DNA of 64,000 bases from assembly GCF_026151205.1 (NCBI RefSeq), contig NC_087084.1:15022322-15086321 (forward strand), written 5' to 3'. Positions 1,701 to 36,226 of the stretch are shown one piece after another. Each line of letters begins with the position of its first letter. Position 1 is the first letter of the stretch. The stretch is from Bolinopsis microptera. Its lineage: Eukaryota > Ctenophora > Tentaculata > Lobata > Bolinopsidae. The position numbers were made by a program, and so were the translations under genes. Under the pieces are notes generated by a model that worked only from the letters and a program-made list of their open reading frames with translations, was not told the origin of the DNA and ran no database searches.

Positions 1701-2712
1701 AATGATAAACTGATATATCATTATTAATCATATATTACATAGTTCATACACTTAGCAAACGAATTAAAGACAAAGGGGCAGCTTTAAACAGTTAAAATCA
1801 AAGGATTGTGTAACAGTGTAAACTACTTGACACAAAAGAGTAACTTACTTTACAAGGAACAAAGGCTTCTACAGAACACAGCTATTAACTATTTACCAAA
1901 ACAAACCCTTTCCAGTACAGGCAAGACATTTGCCAGTGTGCATGAAAAATATTTAAATGTTTACTCTCACACCTGGGCACGAAATGAGATTTCAATACAC
2001 GTTGGTCAGGAATGTCAATTTGTGCCCTGTAATTTACTTTACATTTTCAAACGTGCCTCACTCAAAAGCCATAGCAGTTGGAGTAAAAATCTTAATATAG
2101 CTGTGTGTGGAGTACATAAGAGATGTTTCATGCAATTTATCATGATTCTGTTATGTTTGTGTAATGCTTGAGAGTCAGAATAAGGCCAAATTTTTGTGCA
2201 AAGTGTAATTTACTTTACGTGAAATCGCCCATATACTCTTTGTGTTCATAAACATGATAGCCTGAAGTCCCCAGGTAAATACAGCCTAAGTATACTTAGG
2301 CTGTATTTACCTGGGGACTTCAGGCTATCATGTTTATGAACACAAAGATTAGGCGGAATGACAGGCTGAGTGCGGCCCAGTAAAGCTGTATGGAAATAGT
2401 TTTAATTCTATGTCATATAAAAAACTTAACATCATTTTTGAGTTACAAAAATAAAGGATATCAAATTTAGATAATATCAACAATCAAAACTGATTGGCAG
2501 AACCGAGTATGTTTTTAAAAATTATTTATACCTCTTTTGCTGCTTAGGCGCGGCCGCACCGCGCTTGACCCACATGTTATGCAACGTGTAGCAGAGCAAC
2601 GATTTTGTCATTTGCTTCGATGCGATGCAAGAAAACAACAATTTCAAGAAAACAACAATTTTATTCAGTATCAGTTAAAGCAGACAAAAACATATTTTAT
2701 ATATATAACTTT
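1701..2712. other. Non-coding stretch flanking the 112-bp palindrome
   Basis: No gene is supported. The longest open frame (about 1806-2171) begins at TTG and has no family features. The stretch contains the palindrome at 2237-2348 and a short GC-rich patch near 2548-2640. Confidence 0.5.
2237..2348. repeat. Perfect 112-bp palindrome with no spacer
   Basis: The two 56-bp halves meet at 2292/2293 with the centre CCTAAGTATACTTAGG. I checked base by base that the right half is the exact reverse complement of the left half; pairing fails at the next outer position. It could be a cruciform or hairpin-RNA source, a very young foldback insertion, or a sequencing or assembly fold-back artefact. Confidence 0.9.
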
Positions 2713-3048
2713 CAACACTACTATTATATAACAAATAATTTGAGGATGTACCATGGAAGTCTAGAGTACCCGCAACAAAGAATGCAGCTGTAAACGACTT
2801 GGTAATGGGGTGCATGTGAGCTCTTGGGGCCAGTGGCATCAGAAGACTGGCTATCAGCCTTGGAAATAAGATGAGTTTTCTTTAGATTCATGACACATCC
2901 GCACTGCATCTCCATCACCATGACACAAACATTCTTTCCTCCATTACCCCACCCTTGCCTAGCCCCACCCCTCCCTCCCTCTACCTGTTGCGGGTACTCT
3001 GGACTGCATGGACATCCTTGAATAGAGGTAATTTTTATAGTAGTGTTG
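2713..3048. repeat. Inverted-repeat unit with ~64-bp arms
   Basis: The left arm (2713-2777) and right arm (2986-3048) are imperfect inverted copies that share CAACACTACTAT at the outside and AGAGTACCCGCAACA at the inside. About 208 bp separate them. The unit has no ORF and lies just before the LINE at 3-9.5 kb, so it may be a MITE-like element or part of that LINE's 5' flank. Confidence 0.6.
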
Positions 3049-3485
3049 TGGTATTATCTTGAGTACATGTATCTATTATCTATATTCTATATCAACAAAC
3101 TAGTGTAGACGCCCTATCTAGCCCAACCCTTCCCTTAACCCTCTTCAGCCCCTTTACTCTATACATTGTACTCTTATCCCACGCCCAACCTGCTATAGAC
3201 ATTAAATTATCTCTATCCCTCCCCTTTGGGACCTTGCAGTCCAACCCGCCCCCGCTCCCCTGCCACAACATCACCACTACATACCACCATACACTCATTT
3301 ATTTAGGCTTTGTGCTCTTTGAAAATTCTCTCTGCTTATTCCTCTTGTTTAATCTATCTTTCCATTTGATATCACTCACTCATTTCAAAACTGTTTTACT
3401 CTCATCATCTTATTTTCAGGCTGTTGGTTGGTTCGATGGTGTCCTGGCCCCAATCTCATCATGTGCTCCCTACCATTCTCTCTTC

Positions 3486-5717
3486 ATGCAAGACATAACT
3501 ATTACTGAAGACAACCCTCGGTCTACTAGATCGAGAAACAACTCCTCTCCTTCTGACAGAAATATCATCGATTTTACGAAACCTATTACCATCACAACCC
3601 CTGGACAATACTTGCTCAGTAACCCTGACTCTGGTTGTAGTATTAGTCTCTTCCAGGATGTTTTTCCAAGTCAGCTATGTGATCAGTTCGCTTGTGAAAT
3701 TGAAAACACTGGTGCCCTCAAACAGTACACCACAATCCACAAGCAGGCTCAAGTACAGCTCCCACGACTGTCATCTTGGTATGGCCCTGTTGACTACGCA
3801 TTCTCAGGAATTGTAATGAAAGCCAACTCTGTGTCAGAATGTCCTCGTCTTATTGCAGCATATCAGCACATGGCGGAAAACATCTTTCAACCCAACAACA
3901 TCGATTGTTCCTCTGATTGCTTTTTGATCAACCAGTATAGGACAGGTCGAGATTCTTGTGGCGAACATAGCGATAATGAGCCAGAGGTTGACCTCTCTAA
4001 ACCTGTTGTTACTCTGTCACTCGGTCAACAACGCTGTATGCTCATTAGAGAGGCTAAGAACTCTGGAAATGCCATCACAATCAAACTTGACCAAGGCTCA
4101 GTTCTCGTTATGCATGGTACTGATTTCCAAAAAAAGTACACTCACCAAATACCCAAAGACAATGCAATCACTGCTGCACGCACTTCAGTGACCTATAGGA
4201 CCTGCAACTCCAGCTTCCTGCGTACCAGAAACGCTCTATCTACACCTCTTATTGATATGGCCATCACTCCTGTACTCGCGAACCTGTACTCGCGAACTGT
4301 ACCTGCCCCCAAGACCCCAGGAGACTCCGCAAGCTCCCAGTCGCTTCAAAACAGACGTAGATCTTCTCTTACACTAACATCACTACAAACCATCATCACT
4401 GGAAGCTCCCCAGTCGGATCTCCTCTGGCCTCAAGCTCTCCCTCCGTGACCAGCAGTAAAACTTCAGTCTCTGATAGTGAGACATTCCCTCTCAGTCTAG
4501 AAGCAATGTTAGAAGCCGTTGATTCATTAAAAGAAAAAATGGTGAAAAGTGAACTTTCTCGTCATGGTAGCTCAAACTCAGGGTCCCTCATTGACTGTAA
4601 GAAACGACTAAAGAAAGCTGTGAAAGCATGTCACAAACGCCTCAGCTTGCTTCTTCTTGAGCCTCCATCTACCTCAGCTGAGCCTGACTGCGTCACCCAC
4701 TCCCTCCAAACCATGGAAAACTCTGTTATTGACCTTCAAGCTAAAATTAGCCTGCAACATACCACCCTGCAAACTCTTGTCTTGTGCTCTGACTACAAAT
4801 CCAATCAAAAAGGTAGCCCCAGCTCCCCTAATTTGTCTAACGAGCTGAATACTGTGGACAAGAGACTTGAAAAGCTTGAGGAAATCATGAGTAGCATCAA
4901 CTCAAATCAACAAGACACTGCTACCTCCCTTAAAGCCTTTGAAGAAAATATCACTGCTATTAAAAACGAGGTTGAGGTCTCTAAGGCCTGCCTGCAGTCT
5001 CTCCAGCTCAATGGCCATAAAAATCCCCAAAAGAAAAGGCCCTCGCCTCATCCTGCTCAAAACCAGAACCGTGAAAGCTCAAATAGCACAACTCAGAACC
5101 CCCATAGAAAAACCAGAAAACAGAGAAAAGTGCTCCTCCTTCATGACTCTCAGATGAACGGATTTATAGCCGAGTCTTTCTCTTCTGGGTTCAAGGTTGA
5201 AAAAAAGAAAGTAGGTTCCTTTACTGACCTGAACGGTAAACACATGAGAGATGTGATCAAAGAACCAGAAGTTGACTGCTACATTCTTCAGCTCGGAGTT
5301 AATGATTACAGATATAATGACCGTCATGTTAATAAAGCAGTCAAGGATGCAAAAGAAGCCATCGACACACTCCTCTCAAGTTCCAGTGCTAAAATTGTTG
5401 TCTCCCTGCCCACTCCAACTCCTGGCCCAATAAGTGATCTAACAAATCAATTTGTTTCGGAGATCACCCAATTTGTCTCCACTAAAAGAGAGCTTAGTGA
5501 CTTATACCGGCGCCTCTTCACTGTAAACAACACTGGAAACTTCTCCCGAGCCATCTCTGCTGCTGAGTCATCTGAAGACTCTCCTAACCCTCTGAAGGAA
5601 GACCAACTTCATGTCTCAGAGTATGGTCTAAAAAAACTCTGTATGAATATCAAACTTGGCCTATACCGTGCCTTTGGTATGAGATCCTATAGAAAGCAGC
5701 CCCCCACAGAGCGTTAG
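3486..5717 (+). CDS. LINE-I ORF1: AlkB-like dioxygenase + coiled coil + SGNH esterase
   Basis: The frame is open from 3234, but the first ATG is at 3486 (protein starts MQDITITED), giving 743 residues. Residues about 45-240 form an AlkB-like Fe(II)/2-oxoglutarate dioxygenase core. It has an INQYRTG strand leading into GEHSDNE (metal ligands H161 and D163), YTHQI (H220) and RTSVTYR (R232 and R238, the 2-oxoglutarate-binding arginine pattern of ALKBH2/3-type enzymes). Residues about 330-520 are Ser/Thr-rich and then heptad-rich (KRLEKLEEIMSSINSN), likely a trimerising coiled coil. The C-terminal ~200 residues match SGNH/GDSL hydrolases: LLLHDS, LQLGVNDY and D706-x-x-H709 (DQLH). Esterase domains in LINE ORF1 are known from CR1-like elements; the AlkB part is the surprise. 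Inferred role: an RNP protein that may oxidatively demethylate element RNA or DNA. Confidence 0.87.
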   Translation: MQDITITEDNPRSTRSRNNSSPSDRNIIDFTKPITITTPGQYLLSNPDSGCSISLFQDVFPSQLCDQFACEIENTGALKQYTTIHKQAQVQLPRLSSWYGPVDYAFSGIVMKANSVSECPRLIAAYQHMAENIFQPNNIDCSSDCFLINQYRTGRDSCGEHSDNEPEVDLSKPVVTLSLGQQRCMLIREAKNSGNAITIKLDQGSVLVMHGTDFQKKYTHQIPKDNAITAARTSVTYRTCNSSFLRTRNALSTPLIDMAITPVLANLYSRTVPAPKTPGDSASSQSLQNRRRSSLTLTSLQTIITGSSPVGSPLASSSPSVTSSKTSVSDSETFPLSLEAMLEAVDSLKEKMVKSELSRHGSSNSGSLIDCKKRLKKAVKACHKRLSLLLLEPPSTSAEPDCVTHSLQTMENSVIDLQAKISLQHTTLQTLVLCSDYKSNQKGSPSSPNLSNELNTVDKRLEKLEEIMSSINSNQQDTATSLKAFEENITAIKNEVEVSKACLQSLQLNGHKNPQKKRPSPHPAQNQNRESSNSTTQNPHRKTRKQRKVLLLHDSQMNGFIAESFSSGFKVEKKKVGSFTDLNGKHMRDVIKEPEVDCYILQLGVNDYRYNDRHVNKAVKDAKEAIDTLLSSSSAKIVVSLPTPTPGPISDLTNQFVSEITQFVSTKRELSDLYRRLFTVNNTGNFSRAISAAESSEDSPNPLKEDQLHVSEYGLKKLCMNIKLGLYRAFGMRSYRKQPPTER

Positions 5718-5724
5718 AATAACC

Positions 5725-8700
5725 ATGAAATTCAATAAAAAACAAGCCTCACGAGATCAACTCGCTGTAATGTCCTGGAACATTCAGGACAGCACAGGAG
5801 ATGGGTCTAACAAATTTGAAAATAAAGAATTTCTTTCAATCCTCAATCAAGCTAACATTCTGTGTCTCCAAGAAACAAAGAAACAAGTTAAGATTGAAGG
5901 ATACCTTTCTTTTAATAGCAACCGCAAAAATTCTCGCTCAGGAGGGGTCTGCATTCTTGCTGAAAATGATTTAAGAAAAGGTGTTTCTTGTGTGCCTTGT
6001 AGCGAATCTGACGATATTATTGTTGTCAAACTTGACAAAAACTTTTTTAAGCTTGATTTTGACCTATTTTTAGTATGTTACTATATTAGCCCTGCATATT
6101 CGTCCTATGTCAAAAAAAATCCAGACTATACTGCTAATACTTTCTCCGCTCTTGACTCCATCTGTATCAGACTACGTCAAAAGGGAGAGGTTATCATGTG
6201 TGGCGATGCAAATGCAAGAACTGGAAAACTCCCAGACTATATCCTCTCTTGTAATGCACCTGCCATGCATGACATTTACAATGACATTGGACTTGAACAT
6301 GACATCGAAGAACCCAGAAACAACTCTGACCTGACTATATCTGAACCCCACTGCCAACATTTTCTTGACATGGTTATTAATAACCAACTCAAAATTCTTA
6401 ATGGCCGTACCCTCGGGGACACCACTGGAAAAATGACCTGTCACAAATACAATGGGAGCAGTGTGGTTGACTATTTCGTAATCACCTCATGGGCAAGGGA
6501 TCATGTAAACTCTCTCCAAGTGAAGGAGTTTACATCATACTCTGACCATTGTCCATTAGTCTTGAAACTTACCACATTTGAACCATTTGTTGCCAACTTC
6601 CAGCTCCCAGACTTTTCTAATTTTCCTTGTGGCTATAAGTGGGACAGCAACACCTCTCACTCACTATTTAAAACAGCCCTTAACTCGCCCGAAATTGTTA
6701 GTAACCTGGAAAACATTGCAGCAAACGAATTTAGCAGCACCTTGGAGGGCAATCATGAACTGAACGATGCAATTACTAACTGTCTCCACAGTGCTGCTGA
6801 TATAGCGTTAAAAGTGAAAAAACCTCCTAAAACTTCCGCCCACAAGAAATGGTTTGACCCACAAATCAACTCCTCGAGGCGAAACCTGAATAGGCTAGCA
6901 AACCGGCTAGGTAGTAAGCACTGCAACAATATTCTCAGACGTGAATATTACAAGCAGCGCAATAAGCACAGTAATCTTGTTAACAGTAAGAAATTATCTT
7001 TTCTTAGGAAGTTAAATGAAGCTATTGAAGAGGGTCATATTCTTGACTGGAAAAAATTTAAAAGGCTTAAACAAGAACATGACACTAGCCCCCTACTAGA
7101 CAAATTCGATCTAGCTAGCTTTCATGATTTCTTTGCATCCCTCTATAAGAAACCAGACCAGGAGCCCGATCCCACTCACCACAATCACAATCATTACCCT
7201 GAACCACCAGATCTGGATATCCTAAACAAGCTCATATCTGAACCCGAACTAACTTCTGCAATCAAAAAGCTCAAAAAGGGTAAAAGTTGCTCAAATGACT
7301 TGATCTCAAACGAAATGCTTCAGAGCCTAACTCCGCTTTGTCTCCAAGTCATCCTCAAAACGTTCAACCACTCTCTGGTCTCAGGTTACTATCCATGGCA
7401 TACCAGTATTATCACTCCTATCTACAAATCAGGCAACCCCTTCAGCCCAGACAATTACAGAGCAATAGCAGTTGGCAGTTGTATGGGTAAGCTGTTCTCT
7501 AGCATTTTACTTGAACGTCTGTTATACTTCAAAAAGCTCTACTGTCCTGATCCAAAAGAACAGCTCGGTTTCTCGAAGGGTGCTCAAACTAATGATCACG
7601 TTTTCACCCTTAAGACAGTCATTGATAAATACACTAAAGTTAAAAAAGCTCGTCTCTATGCATGCTTTGTTGATCTAAGAAAGGCCTTTGACACTGTATG
7701 TAGGGACCTTCTTCTGCACAAAATAACATGCCTTGGAATTACCGGTAACTTCTTTAACTGCTTAAGTGATATGTACAAAAACTCAATTGCTCATATAAAA
7801 ATCTCCAAACTCTTGTCCCCTAAAATTGATATTGGCAAAGGAACGGAGCAAGGACACCCCCTATCACCAGACCTTTTTAAAATCTATATTAATAACTTGT
7901 CATCTCTTCTGAAATCTGTTGGTGATTATCCAGTTCTTGCTGACGTTCTAATATCACATCTGCTCTGGGCTGACGATCTTGTCCTTCTTGCTCTAAGTCC
8001 CAAGGCCTTGCAAGTCAATATCAACATTCTATCTGACTTCTGTAACTCCATGGGCCTTGAAGTAAATATAAAGAAAACTAAGATTGTCATATTCAGCCCT
8101 CCCAAAAAGAAGCAGTCCCATGAAACATTTACATTGGGAGGTCAGCCCATCCAGCACACCGAAAAGTACTGCTATCTTGGCATAATATTCCACAGAAATG
8201 GATCCTTTACGGCAGCAAATACTGAGCTGAGGGCCAAAGCTCTCCGTGCTCTATATGGCCTTAAAGGCAATATAGTTAAAGATGCCCTCTCTCACCGTGC
8301 CCTTAATATTCTATTTGATTCCTTAATCAAACCAATCCTGCTTTATGGCTGTCAAGTCTTATGCCCCCACTCTAAAACAATGAGATACCTTTCAAAAATA
8401 GATGACAAAGCCAGCCCCCAGCATACCCTGAAGTACATTGCACAGGACCACTATGAGAAATTCCACCTAAAATTTATCAAGTGGTCTTTGTCCGTCCATT
8501 CAAAAGCATCAAATATAGGTTGCTGGGGCGAAAGTGGGCGCCACCCCCTATTCTTTGAAGCCTGCAAACTTGCAATAGATTACTATAGTCGCCTTGAAAG
8601 CACCGAAAATGAACTACTTTGTGCTGCATTTCACGAGCAGATCATGCTGGGCCTTCCTTGGTATACCAACATCTCAAAGCTTCTCACCAAATACAACTTC

Positions 8701-9258
8701 CCCCACTCATCTTCATCAAAATCTAAGCTCTCCACCCAAATCAGTCATAATATGAGGGAAGAATTCGTGAATACCTGGAAATCTGCCAAGGCCTCCTCAC
8801 CAAAACTAGAATTCTATAACTTAATTAAACATGATTTTGAACCAGAGGCATACCTACGAATAATCAAAGTACCTGATTTTCGAAAAAGCTTGACAAGGTT
8901 TCGTATCAGCTGCCACAACCTCTACGTTGAAAGGGGCAGATACGAAACCCCTCTTGTACCAAGAGAAGAACGTTGGTGCACTTACTGCTTTTTCAGTAAA
9001 GGGCTCAAACCTATCGAGGACGAAAGCCATGTATTAATTGACTGTTTGCTTTACTCCTCAGTTAGGGAAAAATTCAACTTTTATCCCCAAAACATCACTG
9101 ACCTAGCCGGTCTGCTCTCCAACAAAAATCTAGATCCTACCAAATTTACTGCCACAGCAAGAGCAATCCATTCAATTCTCTCTGTGAACGAACAATATAC
9201 AGCCTATTATAAGAGCCCAGATTTCCACTCAAATACTGGCAAGTGCATAATGCTCTAG
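5725..9258 (+). CDS. LINE-I ORF2: AP-like endonuclease + reverse transcriptase
   Basis: 1177 residues from an ATG 7 bp after the ORF1 stop. Residues about 15-280 are an apurinic-like endonuclease (MSWNIQD, CLQETK, MCGDANARTG, and the terminal YSDHCPLVLKL near residue 272). The reverse transcriptase occupies about 500-830: PIYKSG with NYRAIAVGS, FVDLRKAFDT near 648, EQGHPLSPDLF, and the catalytic WADD near 748 (W in place of the more usual F/Y). The C-terminus has a CxxC...HxxxxC zinc-knuckle-like motif (CTYC ... HVLIDC, about 1085-1115). There are no internal stops. It differs strongly from the ORF2 at 28.4-32.1 kb: no N-terminal PHD, different RT words. Clade assignment (I/Nimb-like, or another C-knuckle LINE) is not secure by eye. 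Confidence 0.92.
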   Translation: MKFNKKQASRDQLAVMSWNIQDSTGDGSNKFENKEFLSILNQANILCLQETKKQVKIEGYLSFNSNRKNSRSGGVCILAENDLRKGVSCVPCSESDDIIVVKLDKNFFKLDFDLFLVCYYISPAYSSYVKKNPDYTANTFSALDSICIRLRQKGEVIMCGDANARTGKLPDYILSCNAPAMHDIYNDIGLEHDIEEPRNNSDLTISEPHCQHFLDMVINNQLKILNGRTLGDTTGKMTCHKYNGSSVVDYFVITSWARDHVNSLQVKEFTSYSDHCPLVLKLTTFEPFVANFQLPDFSNFPCGYKWDSNTSHSLFKTALNSPEIVSNLENIAANEFSSTLEGNHELNDAITNCLHSAADIALKVKKPPKTSAHKKWFDPQINSSRRNLNRLANRLGSKHCNNILRREYYKQRNKHSNLVNSKKLSFLRKLNEAIEEGHILDWKKFKRLKQEHDTSPLLDKFDLASFHDFFASLYKKPDQEPDPTHHNHNHYPEPPDLDILNKLISEPELTSAIKKLKKGKSCSNDLISNEMLQSLTPLCLQVILKTFNHSLVSGYYPWHTSIITPIYKSGNPFSPDNYRAIAVGSCMGKLFSSILLERLLYFKKLYCPDPKEQLGFSKGAQTNDHVFTLKTVIDKYTKVKKARLYACFVDLRKAFDTVCRDLLLHKITCLGITGNFFNCLSDMYKNSIAHIKISKLLSPKIDIGKGTEQGHPLSPDLFKIYINNLSSLLKSVGDYPVLADVLISHLLWADDLVLLALSPKALQVNINILSDFCNSMGLEVNIKKTKIVIFSPPKKKQSHETFTLGGQPIQHTEKYCYLGIIFHRNGSFTAANTELRAKALRALYGLKGNIVKDALSHRALNILFDSLIKPILLYGCQVLCPHSKTMRYLSKIDDKASPQHTLKYIAQDHYEKFHLKFIKWSLSVHSKASNIGCWGESGRHPLFFEACKLAIDYYSRLESTENELLCAAFHEQIMLGLPWYTNISKLLTKYNFPHSSSSKSKLSTQISHNMREEFVNTWKSAKASSPKLEFYNLIKHDFEPEAYLRIIKVPDFRKSLTRFRISCHNLYVERGRYETPLVPREERWCTYCFFSKGLKPIEDESHVLIDCLLYSSVREKFNFYPQNITDLAGLLSNKNLDPTKFTATARAIHSILSVNEQYTAYYKSPDFHSNTGKCIML

Positions 9259-9428
9259 GAACTCAAAATAAACTCATGAACCATACAAATTTGATTTACT
9301 TAAAGAAAATAGCATTATATTATAACATTTCTATTTTATCCCTACACATTTGTAAATGATTAGAAGTGTGTAACTTAAATTATTTCAGAATTATAACTAT
9401 TGTGAACTCAATAAAATAATTATCACTT

Positions 9429-9466
9429 TTGTATCCTTGTATCCTTGTATCCTTGTATCCTTGTAT
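9429..9466 (+). repeat. (TTGTATCC)n LINE 3' tail
   Basis: Nearly five copies of an 8-bp unit directly follow the LINE-I 3' UTR and mark its 3' end. Confidence 0.8.
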
Positions 9467-25400: not shown

Positions 25401-27974
25401 CAGTTCAGTGTTGTGATTTACAGTTCAGTGTTGTGATTTACAGTTCAGTGCTGTGTTTTACAGTTCAGTGTTGTGTTTTACAGTTCAGTGTTGTGTTTTA
25501 CAGTTCAGTGTTGTGATTTACAGTTCAGTGTTGTGTTTACAGTCAGTGTTGTGTTTACAGTTCAGTGTTGTGTTTTACAGTTCAGTGTTGTGTTATACAG
25601 TTCAGCTGTTGTGTTTACAGTGCAGTGTTGTGTTTAACAGTTCAGTGTTGTGTTATACAGTTCAGTGCTTGTGTTTTACAGTTCAGTGTTGTGATTTACA
25701 GTTCAGTGTTGTGTTTTACAGTTCAGTGCTGTGTTTTACAGTTCAGTGTTGTGTTTTACAGTTCAGTGTTGTGTTTTACAGTTCAGTGTTGTGTTTTACA
25801 GTTCAGTGTTGTGTTATACAGTTCAGTGTTGTGTTTTACAGTTCAGTGTTGTGTTTTACAGTTCAGTGTTGTGTTTTACAGTTCAGTGTTGTGTTTTACA
25901 GTTCAGTGTTGTGTTATACAGTTCAGTGTTGTGTTTTACAGTTCAGTGTTGTGTTTCACAGTTCAGTGTTGTGTTTTACAGTTCAGTGTTGTCTTTTACA
26001 GTTCAGTGTTGTGATTTACAGTTCAGTGTTGTGTTTTACAGTTCAGTGTTGTGTTTTACAGTTCAGTGTTGTGTTTTACAGTTCAGTGTTGTGTTTTACA
26101 GTTCAGTGTTGTGTTTACAGTGCAGTGTTGTCTTTTACAGTTCAGTGTTGTGATTTACAGTTCAGTGTTGTGTTTTACAGTTCAGTGTTGTGTTTTACAG
26201 TTCAGTGTTGTGTTTTACAGTTCAGTGTTGTGTTTTACAGTTCAGTGTTGTGTTTAAAGTGCAGTGTTGTGTTTTACAGTTCAGTGTTGTGTTTACAGTG
26301 CAGTGTTGTGTTTTACAGTTCAGTGTTGTGTTTTACAGTTCAGTGCTGTGTTTTACAGTTCAGTGTTATGATTTACAGTTCAGTGCTATGATTTACAGTT
26401 CAGTGCTGTGTTTTACAGTTCAGTGTTGTGTTTTACAGTTCCGTGTTGTGTTTTACAGTTCAGTGTTGTGTTTTACAGTTCAGTGCTGTGTTTTACAGTT
26501 CAGTGTTATGATTTACAGTTCAGTGCTATGATTTACAGTTCAGTGCTGTGTTTTACAGTTCAGTGTTGTGTTTTACAGTTCAGTGTTGTGTTTTACAGTT
26601 CAGTGTTGTGTTTCACAGTCCAGTGTTGTGTTTCACAGTTCAGTGTTGTGTTTTACAGTTCAGTGTTGTGTTATACAGTTCGCTGTTGTGTTTACAGTGC
26701 AGTGTTGTGTTAAACAGTTCAGTGTTGTGTTATACAGTTCAGTGCTATGTTTTACAGTTCAGTGTTGTGATTTACAGTTCAGTGTTGTGTTTACAGTTCA
26801 GTGTTGTGTTTTACAGTTCAGTGTTGTGTTTTACAGTGTAGTGCTATGATTTACAGTTCAGTGCTGTGTTTTACAGTTCAGTGTTGTGTTTTACAGTTCA
26901 GTGTTGTGATTTACAGTTCAGTGTTGTGTTTCACAGTTCAGTGTTGCGTTTTACAGTTCAGTGTTGTGTTTTACAGTTCAGTGTTGTGATTTACAGTTAA
27001 GTGCTGTTATTTACAGTTCAGTGTTATGATTTACAGTTAAGTGTTGTGTTATACAGTTCAGTGTTGTGTTTTATAGTTCAGTGTTGTGATTTACAGTTCA
27101 GTGTTGTGTTTTACAGTTCAGTGTTGTGATTTACAGTTCAGTGTTGTGTTTTACAGTTAAGTATTGCTTTTTACAGTTCAGTGTTGTGATTTACAGTTAA
27201 GTGTTGTGTTATACAGTTCAGTGTTGTGTTTTATAGTTCAGTGTTGTGATTTACAGTTCAGTGTTGTGTTTTTCAGTTCAGTGTTGTGATTTACAGTTCA
27301 GTGTTGTGTTTTACAGTTCAGTGTTGTGTTTTACAGTTCAGTGTTGTGATTTACAGTTAAGTGTTGTGTTTTACAGTTCAGTGTTGTGATTTACAGTTCA
27401 GTGTTGTGTTTCACAGTTCAGTGTTGTGTTTTACAGTTCAGTGTTGTGATTTACAGTTAAGTGCTGTGATTTACAGTTCAGTGTTGTGATTTACAGTTAA
27501 GTGTTTTGTTATACAGTTCAGTGTTGTGTTTTATAGTTCAGTGTTGTGTTTTACAGTTAAGTGTTGTGTTTTACAGTTCAGTGTTGTGATTTACAGTTCA
27601 GTGTTGTGTTTTACAGTTCAGTGTTGTGATTTACAGTTCAGTGTTGTGTTATACAGTTCAGTGTTGTGTTTTTTAGTTCAGTGTTGTGATTTACAGTTCA
27701 GTGTTGTGTTTTTCAGTTCAGTGTTGTGATTTACAGTTCAGTGTTGTGTTTTACAGTTCAGTGTTGTGTTTTACAGTTCAGTGTTGTGATTTACAGTTAA
27801 GTGTTGTGTTTTACAGTTCAGTGTTGTGATTTACAGTTCAGTGTTGTGTTTCACAGTTCAGTGTTGTGTTTTACAGTTCAGTGTTGTGTTTTACAGTTCA
27901 GTGTTGTGATTTACAGTTAAGTGCTGTGATTTACAGTTCAGTGTTGTGATTTACAGTTAAGTGTTTTGTTATAG
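19491..27974 (+). repeat. 20-bp minisatellite array, copy A main block (~420 units)
   Basis: The unit is TGTTGTGTTTTACAGTTCAG. Variants affect mainly three positions: TTTTAC/ATTTAC/TTATAC/TTTCAC, TTCAG/TTAAG/TGCAG, and TGTTG/TGCTG. A minority of 19-bp units (TGTTTACAGTGCAG) change phase. Blocks of several hundred bp recur, for example around 20110, 21370, 22980 and 25940, so the array grew by large duplications as well as by single units. All + strand frames are open for long stretches only because 20 bp without a stop cycles through the three phases; they encode one 20-residue peptide (VLCFTVQCCVLQFSVVFYSS) and are not genes. The part after about 26980 is richer in TTAAG and GATTTAC variants, like the block after the inserted LINE. 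Confidence 0.95.
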
Positions 27975-28426
27975 TAGTAGTAAACCCGCGATGGGGTGGC
28001 ATGTGCCTCAATAAAAATATTACAATCATTTATTATTATATCAATGTATCATTAAATATTTCAAAAATATCAATAACGTATGGTTGATCCTTCACACTTG
28101 GTAAAATATATAAAAATAAAGTTAATCTACACTAAAGAATAAATAATCTATATTATATAAATCAACAATATTAACTCCCCATCTTCATGTAGTCATTTAT
28201 CAAAGCGGTAGAAATCCAAGTAATTTTAGTACGCGGTGCGCAAGGAATTTCGTTTTTTTTTTAAAATGTGTAGGCAAGATAAGCCTAAGTGTGGCAGTGA
28301 AAATTGAAAAATAAGTTGCAGAATAAATTGCAGTGACTGACTGTCAAATGCATTATCGCAGTTCATTTATTTGACTGCACTAACGTTTAGGATTCTTACA
28401 GCTGTTATATTTTGCTAATATTTTGT

Positions 28427-31400
28427 TTAAAAGTTGTAAAGGACAAAGTTCTTGTCCGTCCACGAAAGGTTTTCTAGGTCAAGTTTTTGTTTGTCCAGTA
28501 AGTAACGTACAATGTTGTCCTTGTATGAATTAATAAACTTATCTTGTAACTTAGGTACGTTGAAGGGAAGGATTTTGTTTATTTCGTTTATCGTGTTGTT
28601 ATATAATCGTGGTCCTACGTTAGAGATGCTATAATCGGTGATCCGTAATCTGTTGAACTTAATTTCAAAATACTTTGGATTTCTCCTTTCCGTTTGTCTA
28701 AGCGGTGATTTTTCAAATATACTACAGATACTCGATGGTGCTACTCCCATATAAACCTTGTGCATCAAAGTTAGACAGCTTTTAGCAATGAGGTTAGGAA
28801 GAGCCAAAATTCCTATTTTGTTGAAGATGGATTTTGTGTGAGATGGTAGTTTACGTTTTTCTTTGTCGTAAAAATAGTTATGATAATCTGAATCAGTGGC
28901 GCGAATAGCTTTCTTTTGAGCAGAGAATAAAGACTGAATGGAATTTAAAGATTTAGTACCCCAAACAGTAGCGCAGTAATACAGGTGAGATTGAATTAAA
29001 CTATTGTATAGCATTTTTTGAGCTTTATTCGGAATGGAACTTTTAAGTTTCATCATTACGCCTGCATTTCTGGATATTTTAGTCTTTAACTGTTTAATGT
29101 GCTGGCTCCAGCTAAGTTTTGAGTCAATAATGACACCTAAAAATCGTTCATGTTCACTTTTCACTAGTCGCTGTCCTTCTATACTAATATTTATATCCTC
29201 TGGTAATCTGTTAGTGAATATCATGTATTTAGTTTTTCCTATATTGAGTTTAAGACCGTTGTTTTTAACCCATGTCTGTACAGTATTTAATACTCTGTTT
29301 GCACGCATGTTCAGTTCAGTGTACGTGTCGGCAGAAACGATGATGTTTGCATCATCAGCGAAGAAAATATAATGGGCTATATCGCTTACATTTGCAAGGT
29401 CGTTTATGTAAATAATGAACAATATAGGACCAAGAATGGACCCTTGAGGAACTCCATGTTCCAATCCCATTTTTTCTGAACTGCAACCGTTGACGTGAAC
29501 ATACTGTTTCCGGTTAGTTAGATAAGACTCAAACCAGGATAAGCTAAGGCCTCTTACACCATAGTGCTCCAGCTTATGTAGCAGTATCTCACTGTCTACT
29601 AGGTCAAACGCCTTGGAGAAGTCAAGAAGCAGTAATGCTGACACTTGCTTCCTTTCTAGAGCTTTATGTATGTTAAACTGAGCTTCAAGCAACGCATGTT
29701 CACAACTGTGACCCGATCTAAAACCAAATTGCGACGCATATAGAATATTACGTGATTTTAGGTGCTTTACTAAACGTGCATGCATTATTTTTTCGAATAT
29801 CTTTGAGAAGCAGGACAAAAGTGAGATTGGTCTGTAGTTTGTAATTTCGCTGCGCGATCCTCCTTTATGGAGTGGGATAACCTTAGCAAGTTTGAGCTTT
29901 TCGGGGAATACTCCTTCGTGAAGGGAGTGTGAGATCAGGTGATTAACTACTGGAGACAGCACATTGCAAACCTTTTTAAGAGGCTGTATATTCATATCTG
30001 AAGTCGATTTGTTCTTAAGATCATGTATGATTTCAGCAATTTCGGAGGGCGAGGAGTCCTCCAGCTCCATATCAAAATCACATCGACTTGATTGGGGAAG
30101 AGAATGTCCTACTGATCCTGCACCGCGAACCAGATTGTTTTCGCTCTTTAGGTTCTCAGCTATATTAGTAAAATAATCATTAAAACTGTCAGCTATATCT
30201 TGTGAGTCGGTTATAACTCTATTTTTATAGTTAATCTTACTTATTTTTATTTTTTCTTTTGATTTCTTGTTTAATATTTGATTAATCATTTGCCATTGTA
30301 ATTTGCTATTGCTCGCATGCTTTTTAAAATATGATGCGTAATACTTCTTTTTCGCAATATCTACTTGTTTTTCAACAAACTTTTTCATATGCTTATAAGT
30401 TTTTTCATTTTTTTCAGTAGGCTCTTTAACAAAGGATTTATATAGTTGGTTCTTTCGATTGCATGCACATTGAAGCCAATCTAATATCCACGGTTTAGAG
30501 TTTTTTCTGTGGTTTGATTTTTTCTTTTTAACTGGAAAACACTCATTATAGACTTCTTCATATTTAGTGTGAAAAGCTTCAAATTTTGTATTTGTCCCGT
30601 CAACGTTGTGTAAAAAATTCCAATCAATAGACGCTATTTTCTCCTCAAAACGAGCGATTTTCTCTTCATTTATTACTCGGTTTGATGATTCACAAGTTTC
30701 ATTTTTCAATTTATTTCCTATTCTATTAGTGTCGAGAAGTATGCCGGTAAATGTGGCAAGGTGATCAGATAGCGATTCAGTTATAATGCCTGACTTTGTT
30801 ATAGCATGGCATTGGTTTACGAAAATGTGATCAATAAGTGTAGCACTGTGACAAGTAATACGAGTTGGTCGTGATATCGTTGGTGCGAATCCATACTCTG
30901 CAAAAATATCAACATATTTAGTAGTATGGTCATTTACGCCGTATTCTAATAGATTAATATTGGTATCACCTAGAAATAATACGTTTTTGTTGCTATGTCG
31001 CGCCAAATCTTTTAGGGTGTTTTCCAATTTTTCTAAGTAACTGGGGACATTACCACTGGGAGACCGATACATATTGCATAGTATGACGTTTTTGTGGCCA
31101 TTTTGAGCTATCTCTATTAACTGAAATTCGCCAACGTTTGGATCATCTCTATAAGATAATTCAGATCGTGCAGTGACATCAGATAATTCACAGAGATTCT
31201 TGTTTACATAGGTTACTAGACCACCGCCCTTACCAGAGTCCCTTGCGGGAGCCTGAATAAAGGGGGGATGAAAGCCTTCTAACTCTAATTCTTTTCCTTG
31301 AAATGCCATACTTACAACCGTGCAGTTTGTTTCGTTGAAACACAGAACATCAAATTTTAGGTGCTGTTCAATTTCATCACGTATATTAGAGATTGCTTTG

Positions 31401-32095
31401 CTCAAAGATCGAATATTAAGAGATTGAACTTTAAATTCATAAGGCCTACTCGTGTTGATTTGCCGTGGTTCGTAGTATTTACAGCTATTTAGTACATCTG
31501 AGCAGTTATCCCATGGATTAAAGTTTAAGTCATTGTTTTCTTCAAAAGTATTACCTATATAATTAGAGTCATGGTTTCTATGGTATGGGTTAAATTTTGC
31601 GCTATTCTCGTAATTACCGTGTACGGTGTATAATTGTCTAGGTGATACCTCGAAACCAGGAAACAATTCACGTGTGCAGCTTTTGCATCCTAACTCGCCC
31701 GCTGAGCATTTATTGTGCGAATAAGCGTCGCATATCCAGCAAACCGCCATTTTTGATTTGTTTCCTAGCTTTTTACAAGTTTTGCAACTCACCCTGGCAA
31801 AACATACTTTAGATTTAGCTTTTGTTTCTGTACTACAGGGTATGTAAGTGTTACACGAATTTTCATTAGTTAGAGTGGTAATATCAGTATTAGTAAACGG
31901 AAATATGTCAGTAGTACATGCCAAACAATACCAGTTTATGAAACTATTGTCTAATTTCATTCGATTTACGTCATTTGGTTCAAGATTAGCACATTTACGA
32001 TGAAAAATACCGTTACAAAGGCTGCATTTTAGCGGATCTTTACGTTCTAAACATTTTTTAGAACATAATCTACATCTACAAGACTCTTTGCACAT
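28427..32095 (-). CDS. LINE-II ORF2: PHD/zinc fingers + endonuclease + reverse transcriptase
   Basis: 1222 residues from the ATG at 32095. The N-terminus has a PHD-like finger (CRLCSKKC ... CSLCNGIFHRKC ... WYCLAC, residues about 7-60) and a second cysteine/histidine cluster (CKTCKKLG ... CWICDAYSHNKC ... CKSC, about 99-145). The endonuclease spans about 222-450: QSLNIRSLS, CFNETNC, FLGDTNINL, IDHIFVN and SLSDHLATF. The RT spans about 650-950: NYRPISLLSCFSKIFEK, QFGFRSGHS, LLLLDFSKAFD, GVPQGSILGP and the catalytic FADD near 907. The C-terminal segment LIAKSCLTLMHKVYMG recurs in the truncated LINE at 45.7 kb. PHD-bearing proteins are known in CR1-like LINEs, though there mainly in ORF1, so a CR1/Daphne-type lineage is likely but not proved. 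Confidence 0.92.
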   Translation of the reverse strand: MCKESCRCRLCSKKCLERKDPLKCSLCNGIFHRKCANLEPNDVNRMKLDNSFINWYCLACTTDIFPFTNTDITTLTNENSCNTYIPCSTETKAKSKVCFARVSCKTCKKLGNKSKMAVCWICDAYSHNKCSAGELGCKSCTRELFPGFEVSPRQLYTVHGNYENSAKFNPYHRNHDSNYIGNTFEENNDLNFNPWDNCSDVLNSCKYYEPRQINTSRPYEFKVQSLNIRSLSKAISNIRDEIEQHLKFDVLCFNETNCTVVSMAFQGKELELEGFHPPFIQAPARDSGKGGGLVTYVNKNLCELSDVTARSELSYRDDPNVGEFQLIEIAQNGHKNVILCNMYRSPSGNVPSYLEKLENTLKDLARHSNKNVLFLGDTNINLLEYGVNDHTTKYVDIFAEYGFAPTISRPTRITCHSATLIDHIFVNQCHAITKSGIITESLSDHLATFTGILLDTNRIGNKLKNETCESSNRVINEEKIARFEEKIASIDWNFLHNVDGTNTKFEAFHTKYEEVYNECFPVKKKKSNHRKNSKPWILDWLQCACNRKNQLYKSFVKEPTEKNEKTYKHMKKFVEKQVDIAKKKYYASYFKKHASNSKLQWQMINQILNKKSKEKIKISKINYKNRVITDSQDIADSFNDYFTNIAENLKSENNLVRGAGSVGHSLPQSSRCDFDMELEDSSPSEIAEIIHDLKNKSTSDMNIQPLKKVCNVLSPVVNHLISHSLHEGVFPEKLKLAKVIPLHKGGSRSEITNYRPISLLSCFSKIFEKIMHARLVKHLKSRNILYASQFGFRSGHSCEHALLEAQFNIHKALERKQVSALLLLDFSKAFDLVDSEILLHKLEHYGVRGLSLSWFESYLTNRKQYVHVNGCSSEKMGLEHGVPQGSILGPILFIIYINDLANVSDIAHYIFFADDANIIVSADTYTELNMRANRVLNTVQTWVKNNGLKLNIGKTKYMIFTNRLPEDINISIEGQRLVKSEHERFLGVIIDSKLSWSQHIKQLKTKISRNAGVMMKLKSSIPNKAQKMLYNSLIQSHLYYCATVWGTKSLNSIQSLFSAQKKAIRATDSDYHNYFYDKEKRKLPSHTKSIFNKIGILALPNLIAKSCLTLMHKVYMGVAPSSICSIFEKSPLRQTERRNPKYFEIKFNRLRITDYSISNVGPRLYNNTINEINKILPFNVPKLQDKFINSYKDNIVRYLLDKQKLDLENLSWTDKNFVLYNF

Positions 32096-32672
32096 CTTTA
32101 ATTTGCAAGTATAACTATAGATTACTGGTTATATGATATACGATAGATTACTGATTATCAATATAAAATTAAAGATCTAAAGAGATTTATACAGGAACTG
32201 TGGGTCAAGAAAACGGGTTAAGTTTTATGTTTGACTCCTAGTTCCAAAATCAGTCAAAATCTGTAAAGGTTAAATAATTGATTAAATAGTTAAAATATTT
32301 AAATATAAATACACTGAATTTACTCCAGTAATTCTACGCTTGTGTTGTGTTGAAATTAGTTCGGTCCGGATTTATGTTGTTGTTATCTGCAATTTTGCTT
32401 ATAACCGGTTCAGATAAGATAAGAAAGAGTAAAAAAACCGTTTAAAATTTACTGTGATACATTTACCATGGTCTATAAGCCATCGCAATAAAAAATAATT
32501 TATGATTAGAAAAGAAAAAAGAAGATAAGGGACTTGCTGTTTTTTTGAAAAATTTGAACTTAGGTACTTTCTGTGAACGTTACTATACGTTTAGCTTTGA
32601 AAAATTAAATTTGTTCAAAATTGTGTTGTAAACGATTATGTATTCGCGACGAAAAATTTGATTTAAGAATTT
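32096..32672 (-). other. Inter-ORF region of LINE-II
   Basis: 577 bp of AT-rich sequence without an ORF or obvious hairpin separate ORF1 from ORF2. Such a long gap, against 7 bp in LINE-I, would require internal initiation or a separate transcript for ORF2. It could also be a spliced or read-through region; nothing decisive is visible. Confidence 0.5.
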
Positions 32673-34490: not shown

Positions 34491-34515
34491 GGTAAATTTT
34501 CTTATCAGCAAACGA

Positions 34516-34569
34516 ATTTCATGCGTAATGTAAAATACAAATATTTCATGCGTAATGTAAAATACAAAT
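34516..34569 (-). repeat. 27-bp tandem duplication at the 5' end of LINE-II
   Basis: Two exact 27-bp copies (34516-34542 and 34543-34569) lie between the ORF1 start and the array border. Tandem 5' units are known as promoter monomers in some LINEs; two copies of this size are only suggestive. Confidence 0.65.
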
Positions 34570-34570: not shown

Positions 34571-35751
34571 TGATATACAGTTCAGTGTTGTGTTTTATAG
34601 TTCAGTGTTGTGATTTACATTTCAGTGTTGTGTTTTTCAGTTCAGTGTTGTGATTTACAGTTCAGTGTTGTGTTTTACAGTTCAGTGTTGTCTTTTACAG
34701 TTCAGTGTTGTCTTTTACAGTTCAGTGTTGTGTTTTACAGTTCAGTGTTGTGTTTTACAGTTCAGTGTTGTGATTTACAGTTCAGTGTTGTGTTTCACAG
34801 TTCAGTGTTGTGTTTTACAGTTCAGTGTTGTGTTTTACAGTTCAGTGTTGTGATTTACAGTTAAGTGCTGTGATTTACAGTTCAGTGTTGTGTTTTACAG
34901 TTCAGTGTTGTGATTTACAGTTCAGTGTTATGTTTTACAGTTCAGTGTTGTCTTTTACAGTTCAGTGTTGTGTTTTATAGTTCAGTGTTGTGATTTATAG
35001 TTCAGTGTTGTGTTTTACAGTTCAGTGTTGTGATTTACAGTTCAGTGTTGTGTTTTACAGTTAAGTGTTGTGTTTTATAGTTCAGTGTTGTGATTTACAG
35101 TTAAGTGTTGTGTTATACAGTTCAGTGTTGTGTTTTATAGTTCAGTGTTGTGATTTACAGTTCAGTGTTGTGTTTTTCAGTTCAGTGTTGTGATTTACAG
35201 TTCAGTGTTTTGTTATACAGTTCAGTGTTGTGTTTTATAGTTCAGTGTTGTGATTTACATTTCAGTGTTGTGTTTTTCAGTTCAGTGTTGTGATTTACAG
35301 TTCAGTGTTGTGTTTTACAGTTCAGTGTTGTCTTTTACAGTTCAGTGTTGTGTTTTACAGTTCAGTGTTGTGATTTACAGTTAAGTGTTGTGTTTTACAG
35401 TTCAGTGTTGTGATTTACAGTTCAGTGTTGTGTTTCACAGTTCAGTGTTGTGTTTTACAGTTCAGTGTTGTGTTTTACAGTTCAGTGTTGTGATTTACAG
35501 TTAAGTGCTGTGATTTACAGTTCAGTGTTGTGATTTACAGTTAAGTGTTGTGTTATACAGTTCAGTGTTGTGTTTTATAGTTCAGTGTTGTGATTTACAG
35601 TTCAGTGTTGTGTTTTACAGTTCAGTGTTGTGTTTTACAGTTCAGTGTTGTGTTTTACAGTTCAGTGTTGTGTTTTACAGTTCTGTGTTTTGTTTCACAG
35701 TTCAGTGTTGTGATTTACAGTTCAGTGTTGTGTTTTACAGTTCAGTGTTGT
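34571..35751 (+). repeat. 20-bp minisatellite array, copy A block beyond LINE-II (~59 units)
   Basis: The unit is the same as at 19491-27974 and the variant mix matches the last kilobase before the LINE (TTAAG, GATTTAC, TTTTATAG and TTTTTCAG types). The array therefore existed before the LINE split it. It ends abruptly at a GTAACTGCCC inverted-repeat terminus. Confidence 0.93.
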
Positions 35752-36226
35752 GTAACTGCCCACATGCAACCCTTTAATAACTTTAATCAGTAATCTCATC
35801 GGGACTATTCGCTAGCGAGCAACAATGAGACTCATTAGGCGGTAACGAGCCTGTTGGTGGATGACGATCTGATCAATTTGAGTGAATACTGATATTTAAT
35901 TGACGTTCCTTAAAACCGAAGAAATTTGCGTTATACTTATAGCGCTTTACTTCGGTTACTGTCCTATAAGCAGTTTACAACCAATCAGATCATTGATTGA
36001 GTGAAGATATCACTGATTAAGTGCTGGATCACGTATCTACAAGTTCTTAAAAGGGTCACAACTCGGTTAAATTGTGAACAACTAACTTGAAATTTCGGGA
36101 AAGCACTTCAATTATCAAGCCAAATGTGTCTAGAAATTTTGAAGTTCCTAGCTGGAAGCGTTCCCACTTTATGGCGACAATAGTGAAAAAAGGGAGTGGC
36201 GTGCCACACCCACTGTAATTAATTAA

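What the first reader, a model, noticed from the sequence alone, without database searches (positions are those of the whole stretch)
3486..5717. LINE ORF1 carrying an AlkB-like dioxygenase fused to an SGNH esterase
Seen: GEHSDNE, YTHQI and RTSVTYR supply the HxD...H...RxSxTxR set of AlkB/ALKBH2-3 enzymes with correct spacing, followed by a coiled coil and a complete SGNH set (HDS, GVND, DQLH). Known: esterase domains occur in CR1-like ORF1 proteins, and AlkB domains occur in replicases of some plant RNA viruses, where they are thought to demethylate viral RNA. I do not know of AlkB as a LINE ORF1 domain. Inference: the element may remove alkyl marks from its own RNA or cDNA, as repair or as escape from host RNA methylation.
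Basis: partly seen in the sequence, partly recalled or inferred. Interest (0 to 1): 0.93.

Follow-up and report, generated by a model that had tools for sequence, protein, structure and literature searches.

The report
AlkB demethylase domain in LINE retrotransposons
A jumping gene in this genome carries, in its first protein, an intact-looking copy of the AlkB type of enzyme that strips methyl damage off DNA and RNA bases, next to the esterase already known from such elements; the same pair sits in many other jumping-gene families of the same genome, which suggests that these elements clean their own genetic material before copying it.

Summary
Confirmed, and larger than reported. ORF1 at 3486-5717 holds an AlkB-type 2OG-Fe(II) dioxygenase (PF13532, E 2.9e-22; best solved relative ALKBH3, E 3.1e-15), a coiled coil and an SGNH esterase, 7 nt before an endonuclease-RT ORF2: a LINE of about 6.76 kb (2708-9466). 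The window holds a second, very different AlkB-SGNH LINE (27972-34544, minus). In the host genome PF13532 matches 151 places (a lower bound). Ten elements were read with their ORF2 (nine ORF2 types). In 12 divergent ORF1s the iron and 2OG ligands are invariant. AlkB is the most constrained part of the window's ORF1 (dN/dS about 0.05 between subfamilies; esterase 0.12-0.14). Eight AlkB places lie upstream of a Helitron Rep domain; the four of these inspected also have SGNH. Glu at the E. coli AlkB D135 position (12 of 12) and ALKBH3/ALKBH2 as nearest relatives favour m1A/m3C-type lesions, which block reverse transcription, over m6A. Ten searches of held papers listed none on AlkB in a LINE; [quoted passage not shown] Function is inferred: no fold was predicted, no activity tested.

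The parts
2708..9466 (+). LINE element 1 (whole)
   Evidence: of six other copies compared, L002, L003 and L008 begin their homology at window 2708, L004 at 2720, L005 and L007 further in; the C9 copy follows the window to 9461 and ends in the same (TTGTATCC)n tail
2708..3485 (+). 5' UTR of element 1; hairpin in its first 350 nt (arms 2758-2777 / 2986-3005)
   Evidence: no shuffle control for the fold
3486..5717 (+). ORF1, 743 aa
3645..4205 (+). AlkB-type 2OG-Fe(II) dioxygenase domain (about residues 54-240): H161, D163, E165, H220, R232, R238
   Evidence: PF13532 E 2.9e-22; ALKBH3 E 3.1e-15; invariance 12 of 12
4821..5021 (+). predicted coiled coil (residues about 446-512)
   Evidence: heptad score, 0 of 2000 shuffles reach it; weak coiled-coil Pfam matches
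5022..5126 (+). basic linker (residues 513-547; 9 K/R against 1 D/E), where ZfL2-1 ORF1p has its arginine-rich motif
   Evidence: comparison with PMC3905857 passages
5127..5690 (+). SGNH/GDSL esterase domain (about residues 548-735): S555, G604, N606, D706, H709
   Evidence: profile A7 finds 4c1b and PAF-AH chains; S555, G604, N606, H709 in 12 of 12 in A1
5725..9258 (+). ORF2, 1177 aa: AP-type endonuclease plus reverse transcriptase (RT about 7432-8187)
   Evidence: PF00078 E 9.3e-28, PF14529 E 2.1e-06
9429..9466 (+). 3' tail (TTGTATCC)4.8
27972..34544 (-). LINE element 2 (whole), 3' end in a (CTA)n run at about 27972-27985
   Evidence: homology limits of copies L010-L015 (34537 to 34552, four of six at 34544) and of the 3' ends L062-L065 (27972 or 27975)
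32673..34490 (-). ORF1 of element 2 (N-terminal part, AlkB, SGNH)
33342..33797 (-). AlkB domain of element 2 ORF1
   Evidence: PF13532 E 4.2e-19; ALKBH3 E 8.7e-12; 26% identical to element 1 over 186 aligned columns
32742..33269 (-). SGNH domain of element 2 ORF1 (S, G, N, H kept; the D of the last block is N)
28427..32095 (-). ORF2 of element 2: PHD-like finger (E 0.0057, below cut-off), endonuclease, RT
   Evidence: joined to this ORF1 in 7 of 7 other-copy loci L010-L016

Best explanation
The 3486-5717 protein is the ORF1p of a LINE that carries an ALKBH2/3-type nucleic-acid dealkylase with all its catalytic residues. Most likely mechanism: ORF1p multimerises through its coiled coil on the element's own RNA, and the tethered AlkB domain oxidatively removes Watson-Crick-face methyl groups (m1A, m3C and the like) from the RNA template, and perhaps from single-stranded cDNA, so that reverse transcription is not blocked. 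The SGNH domain acts at membranes or lipids, as proposed for other LINE ORF1 esterases. The same need (copying exposed single-stranded nucleic acid) would explain why AlkB with SGNH also sits in Helitrons of this genome. Shown: domains, catalytic residues, coupling to RT ORFs, copy number, purifying selection, presence in Helitrons. Inferred: enzymatic activity, substrate, tethering to RNA, benefit to transposition.
For: AlkB profile and ALKBH3/2 matches. Twelve ORF1s keep H161, D163, H220, R232, R238 and E165 in 12 of 12, and S555, G604, N606, H709 in 12 of 12, at 19-22% identity to the first sequence. In four comparisons between subfamilies dN/dS is 0.049-0.062 for AlkB, 0.12-0.14 for SGNH, 0.12-0.18 for the coiled coil, 0.25-0.28 for the Ser-rich linker and 0.18-0.78 for the short basic linker. 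38 of 150 AlkB places have an ORF2 648-1260 bp downstream on the same strand, using 100 of the 128 ORF2 places that three queries returned; 10 of 16 element-1-family AlkB places gain one with 29 of the 40 P0003 places. 8 of 150 AlkB places lie upstream of a Helitron Rep domain; one was read in full: SGNH, AlkB, Helitron_like_N and PIF1 in one frame. E165 is at the E. coli AlkB D135 position (H+4; the numbering is recalled): D135 lies next to N6 of m1A, D135I demethylates m6A, and such methylations block RT and are removed by AlkB (PMC7968990, passages).
Against: No activity, binding or expression data. RNA binding by these ORF1ps is untested; only a basic linker is seen in P0001. How common m1A/m3C is in LINE RNA of this host is unknown, and the substrate could equally be DNA. 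P0002 also has a weak match to a 'DNA N6-methyl adenine demethylase' (E 0.018). 104 of 150 AlkB places were not assigned to an ORF2 or Helitron by the few queries used. In three pairs of near-identical copies there are too few changes to compare domains (L003/L004: AlkB 3 synonymous and 1 nonsynonymous, SGNH 1 and 0; L005/L007: 1 and 1 in all; L001/L002: 2 nonsynonymous in all).
Confidence: 0.58

Rival explanations
1. The AlkB domain counters host DNA methylation: it repairs 3mC left by cytosine DNA methyltransferases, or other marks, on the element's DNA or single-stranded DNA intermediates, so that silenced or methylated elements stay copyable.
For: It fits both LINEs and Helitrons and the ALKBH2/3 type. 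Papers count ALKB2 with the DNMTs as part of the DNA-methylation toolkit of arthropods, for associated damage repair, and cnidarian transposons as methylation targets (PMC8857917, PMC11294593, passages). The chemical link of 3mC to DNMT activity is recalled, not read here.
Against: The enzyme sits in ORF1p, which in known LINEs acts in the RNA particle; no methylation data for this host; no nuclear or DNA-binding evidence.
Confidence: 0.2
2. Epitranscriptomic escape: the domain erases m6A or similar regulatory marks (or 6mA in DNA) from the element, as proposed for the ALKBH5-type protein of orchid Ty3/Gypsy elements.
For: That retrotransposon-borne AlkB demethylates m6A in single-stranded RNA in vitro (PMC9289625, passages). 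P0002 has a weak match to a DNA 6mA demethylase (E 0.018). Mouse ALKBH1 was reported to act on 6mA of young L1s (PMC4982230, PMC6015446, passages).
Against: These domains match ALKBH3 and ALKBH2 best; ALKBH5 and FTO are absent from the PDB lists of the two window proteins even at E up to 1. Glu at the AlkB D135 position in 12 of 12, where an Asp-to-Ile change gives m6A activity (PMC7968990).
Confidence: 0.13
3. The AlkB fold serves only as a structural or nucleic-acid-binding part of ORF1p and the chemistry is not used.
For: Esterase-type ORF1ps lack a defined RNA-binding domain (PMC3905857 passages), so a binding part would be useful.
Against: Iron and 2OG ligands invariant in 12 of 12 divergent ORF1s; lowest dN/dS of the protein between subfamilies.
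Confidence: 0.05
4. A recent chance capture of host ALKBH3 without lasting function.
For: AlkB of element 1 groups with host ALKBH2/3-type rows rather than with the other 15 TE rows in an unrooted tree (branch 97/96).
Against: Only 27-29% identity to the three host-type rows in the AlkB domain; subfamilies with overall dS 0.3-0.9 keep it under purifying selection; divergent families keep it.
Confidence: 0.02

Closest known systems
Type IV (esterase) ORF1p of CR1, L2 and RTEX LINEs, e.g. zebrafish ZfL2-1 (PDB 4c1a/4c1b; PMC3905857, PMC4120745, both seen as passages)
   Same: coiled coil, basic linker, SGNH esterase, upstream of endonuclease-RT ORF2; the SGNH profile finds 4c1b
   Different: an AlkB dioxygenase domain is added, before the coiled coil in element 1 and between the N-terminal part and the esterase in the other families; the word AlkB does not occur in either paper (listing)
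Orchid (Phalaenopsis) giant Ty3/Gypsy elements with an AlkB ORF (PMC9289625, passages)
   Same: a retrotransposon encodes an AlkB-type 2OG-Fe(II) enzyme with kept iron ligands
   Different: LTR element, separate ORF, ALKBH5-type with m6A activity; here non-LTR, fused in ORF1 with an esterase, ALKBH2/3-type
AlkB domains in replicases of plant RNA viruses (PMC544882, passages)
   Same: AlkB domain in the protein of a selfish element that copies RNA
   Different: RNA viruses with RdRp, plant hosts, no reverse transcription
Bdelloid rotifer Vesta LTR and Penelope-like elements with GDSL ORF3 (PMC5408684, passages)
   Same: one kind of accessory ORF shared between very different transposon classes of one host
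   Different: GDSL esterase without AlkB (the word does not occur there); not grouped with the LINE esterases in that paper
Human ALKBH3 / ALKBH2
   Same: closest solved relatives of the domain by sequence; HxDxE ... H ... RxNxTxR pattern
   Different: cellular repair enzymes; the TE versions read R-x-S-x-T-x-R and are fused to ORF1 parts
SGNH gene texim mobilised by fish Helitrons (PMC4021074, passages)
   Same: SGNH hydrolase travelling with a Helitron
   Different: a captured gene beside the Helitron, no AlkB; here SGNH and AlkB lie in one frame with the Rep-helicase

Membership tests
AlkB family of 2OG-Fe(II) dioxygenases | significant family profile match | tested here: met
   PF13532 E 2.9e-22 and 4.2e-19 for the two window ORF1s; 12 of 12 ORF1s
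AlkB family of 2OG-Fe(II) dioxygenases | HxD ... H ... RxxxxxR | tested here: met
   12 of 12; rule as given in PMC544882
AlkB family of 2OG-Fe(II) dioxygenases | double-stranded beta-helix (jelly-roll) fold | not testable with these tools
AlkB family of 2OG-Fe(II) dioxygenases | 2OG-dependent demethylase activity | not testable with these tools
   needs protein
Type IV (esterase) LINE ORF1p | SGNH hydrolase domain with S, G, N, H | tested here: met
   S555, G604, N606, H709 in 12 of 12 in A1; profile A7 finds 4c1b E 2.2e-06. Against: in the SGNH-only alignment the Ser column is not invariant, L049-L051 read SSS where others read xDS, the last-block Asp is D in 7 of 12, and only 8 of 12 match PF13472 at E up to 0.05
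Type IV (esterase) LINE ORF1p | coiled coil before the esterase | tested here: met
   P0001 only, by heptad score; other families not tested for it
Non-LTR retrotransposon (LINE) | ORF2 with AP-type endonuclease and RT | tested here: met
   P0003 and P0004 by Pfam; eight further ORF2s by blastp similarity to these
Non-LTR retrotransposon (LINE) | common 3' end, many copies cut at the 5' side | tested here: met
   shared 3' repeat tails; of 61 P0001 matches 26 reach the C-terminal end (738 or later) but not residue 1, and 6 the reverse, some being pieces of one broken copy
Non-LTR retrotransposon (LINE) | target-site duplications | tested here: inconclusive
   for the C9 copy an 8-bp word lies on both sides but 7 nt off the 5' end; none seen by eye for the window copy
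RTE/RTEX clade (element 1) and CR1/L2 group (element 2) | RT phylogeny with named reference elements | not tested
   no reference set held; clade names rest on recalled motifs. The ORF2s of elements 1 and 2 are 26% identical over 437-451 aa
Orchid AlkB-Gypsy type (ALKBH5-like) | nearest to ALKBH5, LTR element | tested here: not met
   nearest are ALKBH3 and ALKBH2; endonuclease-RT ORF2
Helitron with AlkB-SGNH | Rep (Helitron_like_N) and PIF1 helicase in the same frame | tested here: met
   one locus read (L040/L059): PF14214 E 3.8e-22, PF05970 E 7.8e-22, PF13532 E 1.9e-21, PF13472 E 3.4e-06; 8 of 150 AlkB places lie upstream of such a Rep

The most novel reading that the evidence does not exclude
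AlkB joined to an SGNH esterase is a mobile toolkit shared by several LINE lineages and by Helitrons of one animal genome. It was kept under strong selection because transposition intermediates (RNA template, single-stranded DNA) must be cleared of Watson-Crick-face methylation, either chemical damage or marks laid down by the host as a defence. This would be an arms race over base alkylation between transposons and their host.
Probability: 0.4. Interest if true: 0.93.

Novelty: new variant of a known kind. Interest (0 to 1): 0.86.

Why it matters
ORF1p is the least understood part of LINEs. A dealkylase with all its catalytic residues in it, kept under stronger constraint than the known esterase and spread over many families, says that base methylation of the template or intermediate probably limits transposition in at least one host. 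It makes the question directly testable with one catalytic mutant, links transposon biology to RNA/DNA alkylation repair, and parallels AlkB in plant RNA viruses and in an orchid LTR retrotransposon. LINE RT-AlkB pairs could also be of practical use for reverse transcription through methylated RNA.

Tried and rejected
AlkB call as a chance motif: rejected by profile scores, the second window element and 12 of 12 invariance. P0002 as a stray gene next to an unrelated element: rejected, because in 7 of 7 other-copy loci (L010-L016; L017 and L018 left out for broken frames) the same ORF2 follows, 98.6-99.7% identical to P0004; in the six with a full-length ORF1 match the gap is 571-587 nt. Inverted repeat at 2.7-3.05 kb as a separate small DNA transposon: rejected, since element copies begin at 2708 and include it.

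Relatives outside the host: scans of viral contigs with P0001, A4 and A5 and of genome contigs with A4 found none; these hold viral and bacterial/archaeal contigs, so this says little about other animals. A scan with A1 was not possible. Number of AlkB captures: left open. In an unrooted tree the 15 other TE rows part from element 1 plus host-type rows at 97/96; all 17 TE rows as one side has 84/76; the program warned of long branches. Helitron AlkB nested in the LINE rows: not secure (AU p 0.2 for the alternative). L021 (40.6% identical to the host ALKBH3-like row) was left unnamed.

Novelty: ten of ten paper searches (two were about mechanism, and 104 found nothing) listed no title or abstract start on AlkB in LINEs or Helitrons. 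The lists are cut: one search listed 25 of 201 papers, 15 of 10,072, 12 of 43. Passages were opened in 14 papers. AlkB passages in PMC4982230, PMC6015446, PMC8857917, PMC3750612, PMC11294593, PMC10161547 and PMC7915175 concern host genes, in PMC544882 plant viruses, in PMC7968990 the bacterial enzyme as a tool, in PMC9289625 the orchid element; the word does not occur in PMC5408684, PMC4021074, PMC3905857 and PMC4120745. Of the 15 papers holding both Helitron and AlkB three were opened. Subscription papers, preprints and Repbase were not searched. A 2016 BioEssays review on adenine methylation in eukaryotes, which I recall as possibly touching AlkB in transposons, is not held and was not read.
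Full report
What was claimed.

Check of the observation. The frame is open from 3486 to the stop at 5717, 743 aa, and 3486 is the first in-frame ATG after the upstream stop. PF13532 (2OG-FeII_Oxy_2) matches residues 74-238 at E 2.9e-22, 80.3 bits against a cut-off of 31.2. Against solved structures the best matches are ALKBH3 (8jnr, E 3.1e-15, residues 40-240), then ALKBH2 (1.2e-07); E. coli AlkB and ALKBH1 are marginal (0.04 and above); no ALKBH5 or FTO is listed at E up to 1. The SGNH part alone scores below Pfam's cut-off (E 0.05-0.08). A profile of 12 such domains finds a PAF-like hydrolase (2hsj, 2e-09) and 4c1b, the solved esterase of the zebrafish ZfL2-1 LINE ORF1p (2.2e-06).

The element. 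Of six other copies compared, three begin their homology at window 2708, one at 2720 and two further in; the C9 copy follows the window to 9461. The element ends in (TTGTATCC)4.8 at 9429-9466. ORF2 (5725-9258) begins 7 nt after the ORF1 stop and has an AP-type endonuclease and an RT (PF00078 E 9.3e-28). In the host genome P0001 matches 61 places; 9 of these, the window's own included, cover residue 1 to at least 741 without a stop. The C9 copy differs from the window in two residues. The ORF2 matches 40 places. Of the 61 P0001 matches 26 reach the C-terminal end but not residue 1, 6 the reverse, as expected of a LINE. The near-identical copies suggest recent activity (inference).

A second one in the same window. 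ORF 32673-34511(-) has PF13532 at E 4.2e-19 and ALKBH3 at 8.7e-12, followed by an SGNH domain. It is followed on its strand by an endonuclease-RT ORF with a weak PHD match (28427-32095). In 7 of 7 other-copy loci (L010-L016; two broken ones left out) this ORF1 is followed by that ORF2 at 98.6-99.7% identity, so they form one element, 27972-34544. Its ORF1 is 26% identical to that of element 1 over the AlkB stretch and its ORF2 26%.

A genome-wide module. PF13532 matches 151 places in the host genome; only the best 150 candidates of 587 were scored, so this is a lower bound. At least three are not ORF1-like and match ALKBH2 or ALKBH3 far better (L019 E 3.9e-60, L020 2.5e-39, L021 1.6e-27). Of ten further loci fetched (L049-L058), eight show an AlkB-SGNH ORF1 followed by an ORF2 that is similar to P0003 or P0004 by blastp: L049, L050, L051, L053, L054, L055, L056 and L058. 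L052 has the ORF1 but a nested insertion in its ORF2, and L057 has no ORF2 over 200 aa. With the two window elements that makes ten elements read with ORF2, of nine ORF2 types, since L049 and L051 share an ORF2 (98% identical) but have ORF1s 55% identical, a direct sign of ORF1 exchange. Of 150 listed AlkB places, 38 have an ORF2 648-1260 bp downstream on the same strand, 8 have a Helitron Rep within 6 kb, and 104 are unassigned; for this I used 100 of the 128 ORF2 places that three queries returned, leaving out mostly partial ones. With 29 of the 40 P0003 places, 10 of 16 element-1-family AlkB places gain an ORF2 within 4.5 kb. Of five ORF2 loci without a listed AlkB that I then fetched, four carry the AlkB motif upstream and one (L068) keeps only an SGNH remnant.

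Constraint. In the alignment of 12 ORF1s (P0001, P0002, L049-L058; 19-22% identity to the first), H161, D163, H220, R232, R238 and E165 are invariant, as are S555, G604, N606 and H709; the last-block Asp of SGNH is kept in 7 of 12. In an alignment of the SGNH parts alone the Ser column is not invariant (G65, N67, N115 and H170 are), and three families read SSS in block I, so the SGNH serine depends on the alignment. Between subfamilies of element 1, dN/dS (Nei-Gojobori) is 0.049-0.062 for AlkB, 0.10-0.16 for residues 1-50, 0.12-0.14 for SGNH, 0.12-0.18 for the coiled coil, 0.25-0.28 for the Ser-rich linker and 0.18-0.78 for the short basic linker (pairs L001/L003, L001/L005, L003/L005, L001/L035). 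Four closer pairs were also run; L005/L035 agrees (AlkB 0.038, SGNH 0.188), the other three have too few changes to tell. A strict pattern over 58 loci, several of which overlap, found the full motif in 43; of the 15 without it, ten fit a looser form (the Helitron-type rows and L054, L055, L057), three are the host-type rows, and L017 and L018 have broken frames.

Helitrons. Seven AlkB loci (L023, L033, L037, L040, L042, L047, L048; open frames 719-3388 aa) share one AlkB type; five of the seven have a detectable SGNH domain N-terminal to it, and four of the seven (L023, L040, L042, L048) have a Rep domain within 6 kb. One was read on: SGNH, Pro/Ala-rich repeats, AlkB, then Helitron_like_N (E 3.8e-22) and PIF1 (7.8e-22) in one frame of 3388 aa. 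9 of 41 Helitron_like_N places have a listed AlkB upstream; the other 32 have none listed. So part of the Helitrons has it.

Origin. In a 20-row unrooted AlkB tree the host ALKBH2/3-type rows, element 1, and the other 15 TE rows fall apart; the branch to the 15 has support 97/96. Element 1 may or may not share a capture with the rest (84/76 for all TE rows on one side). The three main LINE groups of the AlkB tree recur in the ORF2 tree, though inside one of them the pairing differs (AlkB joins L053 with L056, ORF2 joins P0002 with L056). AlkB has thus long travelled with ORF2 in those groups.

How it most likely works. From read passages: E. coli AlkB D135 lies near N6 of m1A and D135I demethylates m6A; m1A, m3C and similar marks hinder reverse transcription, and AlkB treatment removes them in tRNA sequencing (PMC7968990). 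The TE domains have Glu at that position in 12 of 12 (the equivalence rests on the H+4 spacing). Coiled coil, basic linker and SGNH match the plan of the ZfL2-1 ORF1p, whose esterase binds charged phospholipids and liposomes and whose ORF1p remodels nucleic acids in vitro (PMC3905857 passages). I infer that ORF1p carries a dealkylase onto the element's RNA or single-stranded DNA and clears blocks to copying. Helitrons, which copy through single-stranded DNA (recalled), share that need. Rivals: repair of 3mC linked to host DNA methylation, erasure of m6A or 6mA, a purely structural role; see the Rival explanations section. For the 6mA rival stands a weak match of P0002 to a DNA 6mA demethylase (E 0.018).

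Comparison and novelty. Esterase ORF1s are known in CR1, L2, RTEX and Penelope-like elements (PMC3905857, PMC4120745 passages), and GDSL ORFs shared between transposon classes in bdelloid rotifers (PMC5408684 passages). AlkB is known in plant RNA viruses (PMC544882 passages) and in an orchid Ty3/Gypsy lineage, there ALKBH5-like with m6A activity in vitro (PMC9289625 passages). Ten searches of the held papers listed none on AlkB in a LINE or Helitron; the lists were cut, and preprints, most subscription papers and Repbase were not covered. I therefore call it a new variant of a known kind: esterase-type LINE ORF1 with an added base dealkylase, in unusual breadth within one genome.

Limits. The host has no name here; that it is an animal is inferred. 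Clade names for the ORF2s were not tested. No fold was predicted. No activity, expression or modification data exist here.

Noticed in passing
window 19492-27975, 34575-35755, 56260-59330: 20-bp minisatellite (GTTCAGTGTTGTGTTTTACA-like) in large arrays; element 2 lies between two of them, its copy apparently inserted in the array.
   Followed up: partly
window 15915-19448(-) and 52076-55720(-): Two ankyrin-repeat ORFs, apparently with several membrane helices, in segments about 93-95% alike: a recent segmental duplication.
   Followed up: no
L049 and L051; L066 and L067 against L050: Nearly identical ORF2s (98%) joined to ORF1s only 55-67% identical: exchange of AlkB-SGNH ORF1s between LINE copies.
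   Followed up: partly
L052:2559-5567: A second, divergent AlkB-SGNH stretch in frame inside the endonuclease ORF2, followed by another PHD-endonuclease-like ORF: a nested insertion that keeps the frame.
   Followed up: partly
window 2708-3060: First 350 nt of element 1 fold into a long hairpin (-121 kcal/mol by ViennaRNA, no shuffle control), a 5' UTR structure at the element's start.
   Followed up: no
window 36324-37981(+): Fragment of a third RT, 32-43% identical to the ORF2 of element 2, in several frames.
   Followed up: no
L021:1063-1950 (G000:C5:22266892): An ALKBH3-like open frame 40.6% identical to the host ALKBH3-like gene; host paralogue or captured gene, not resolved.
   Followed up: partly
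window 62019-62690(-): Open frame made of VVTR tandem repeats.
   Followed up: no
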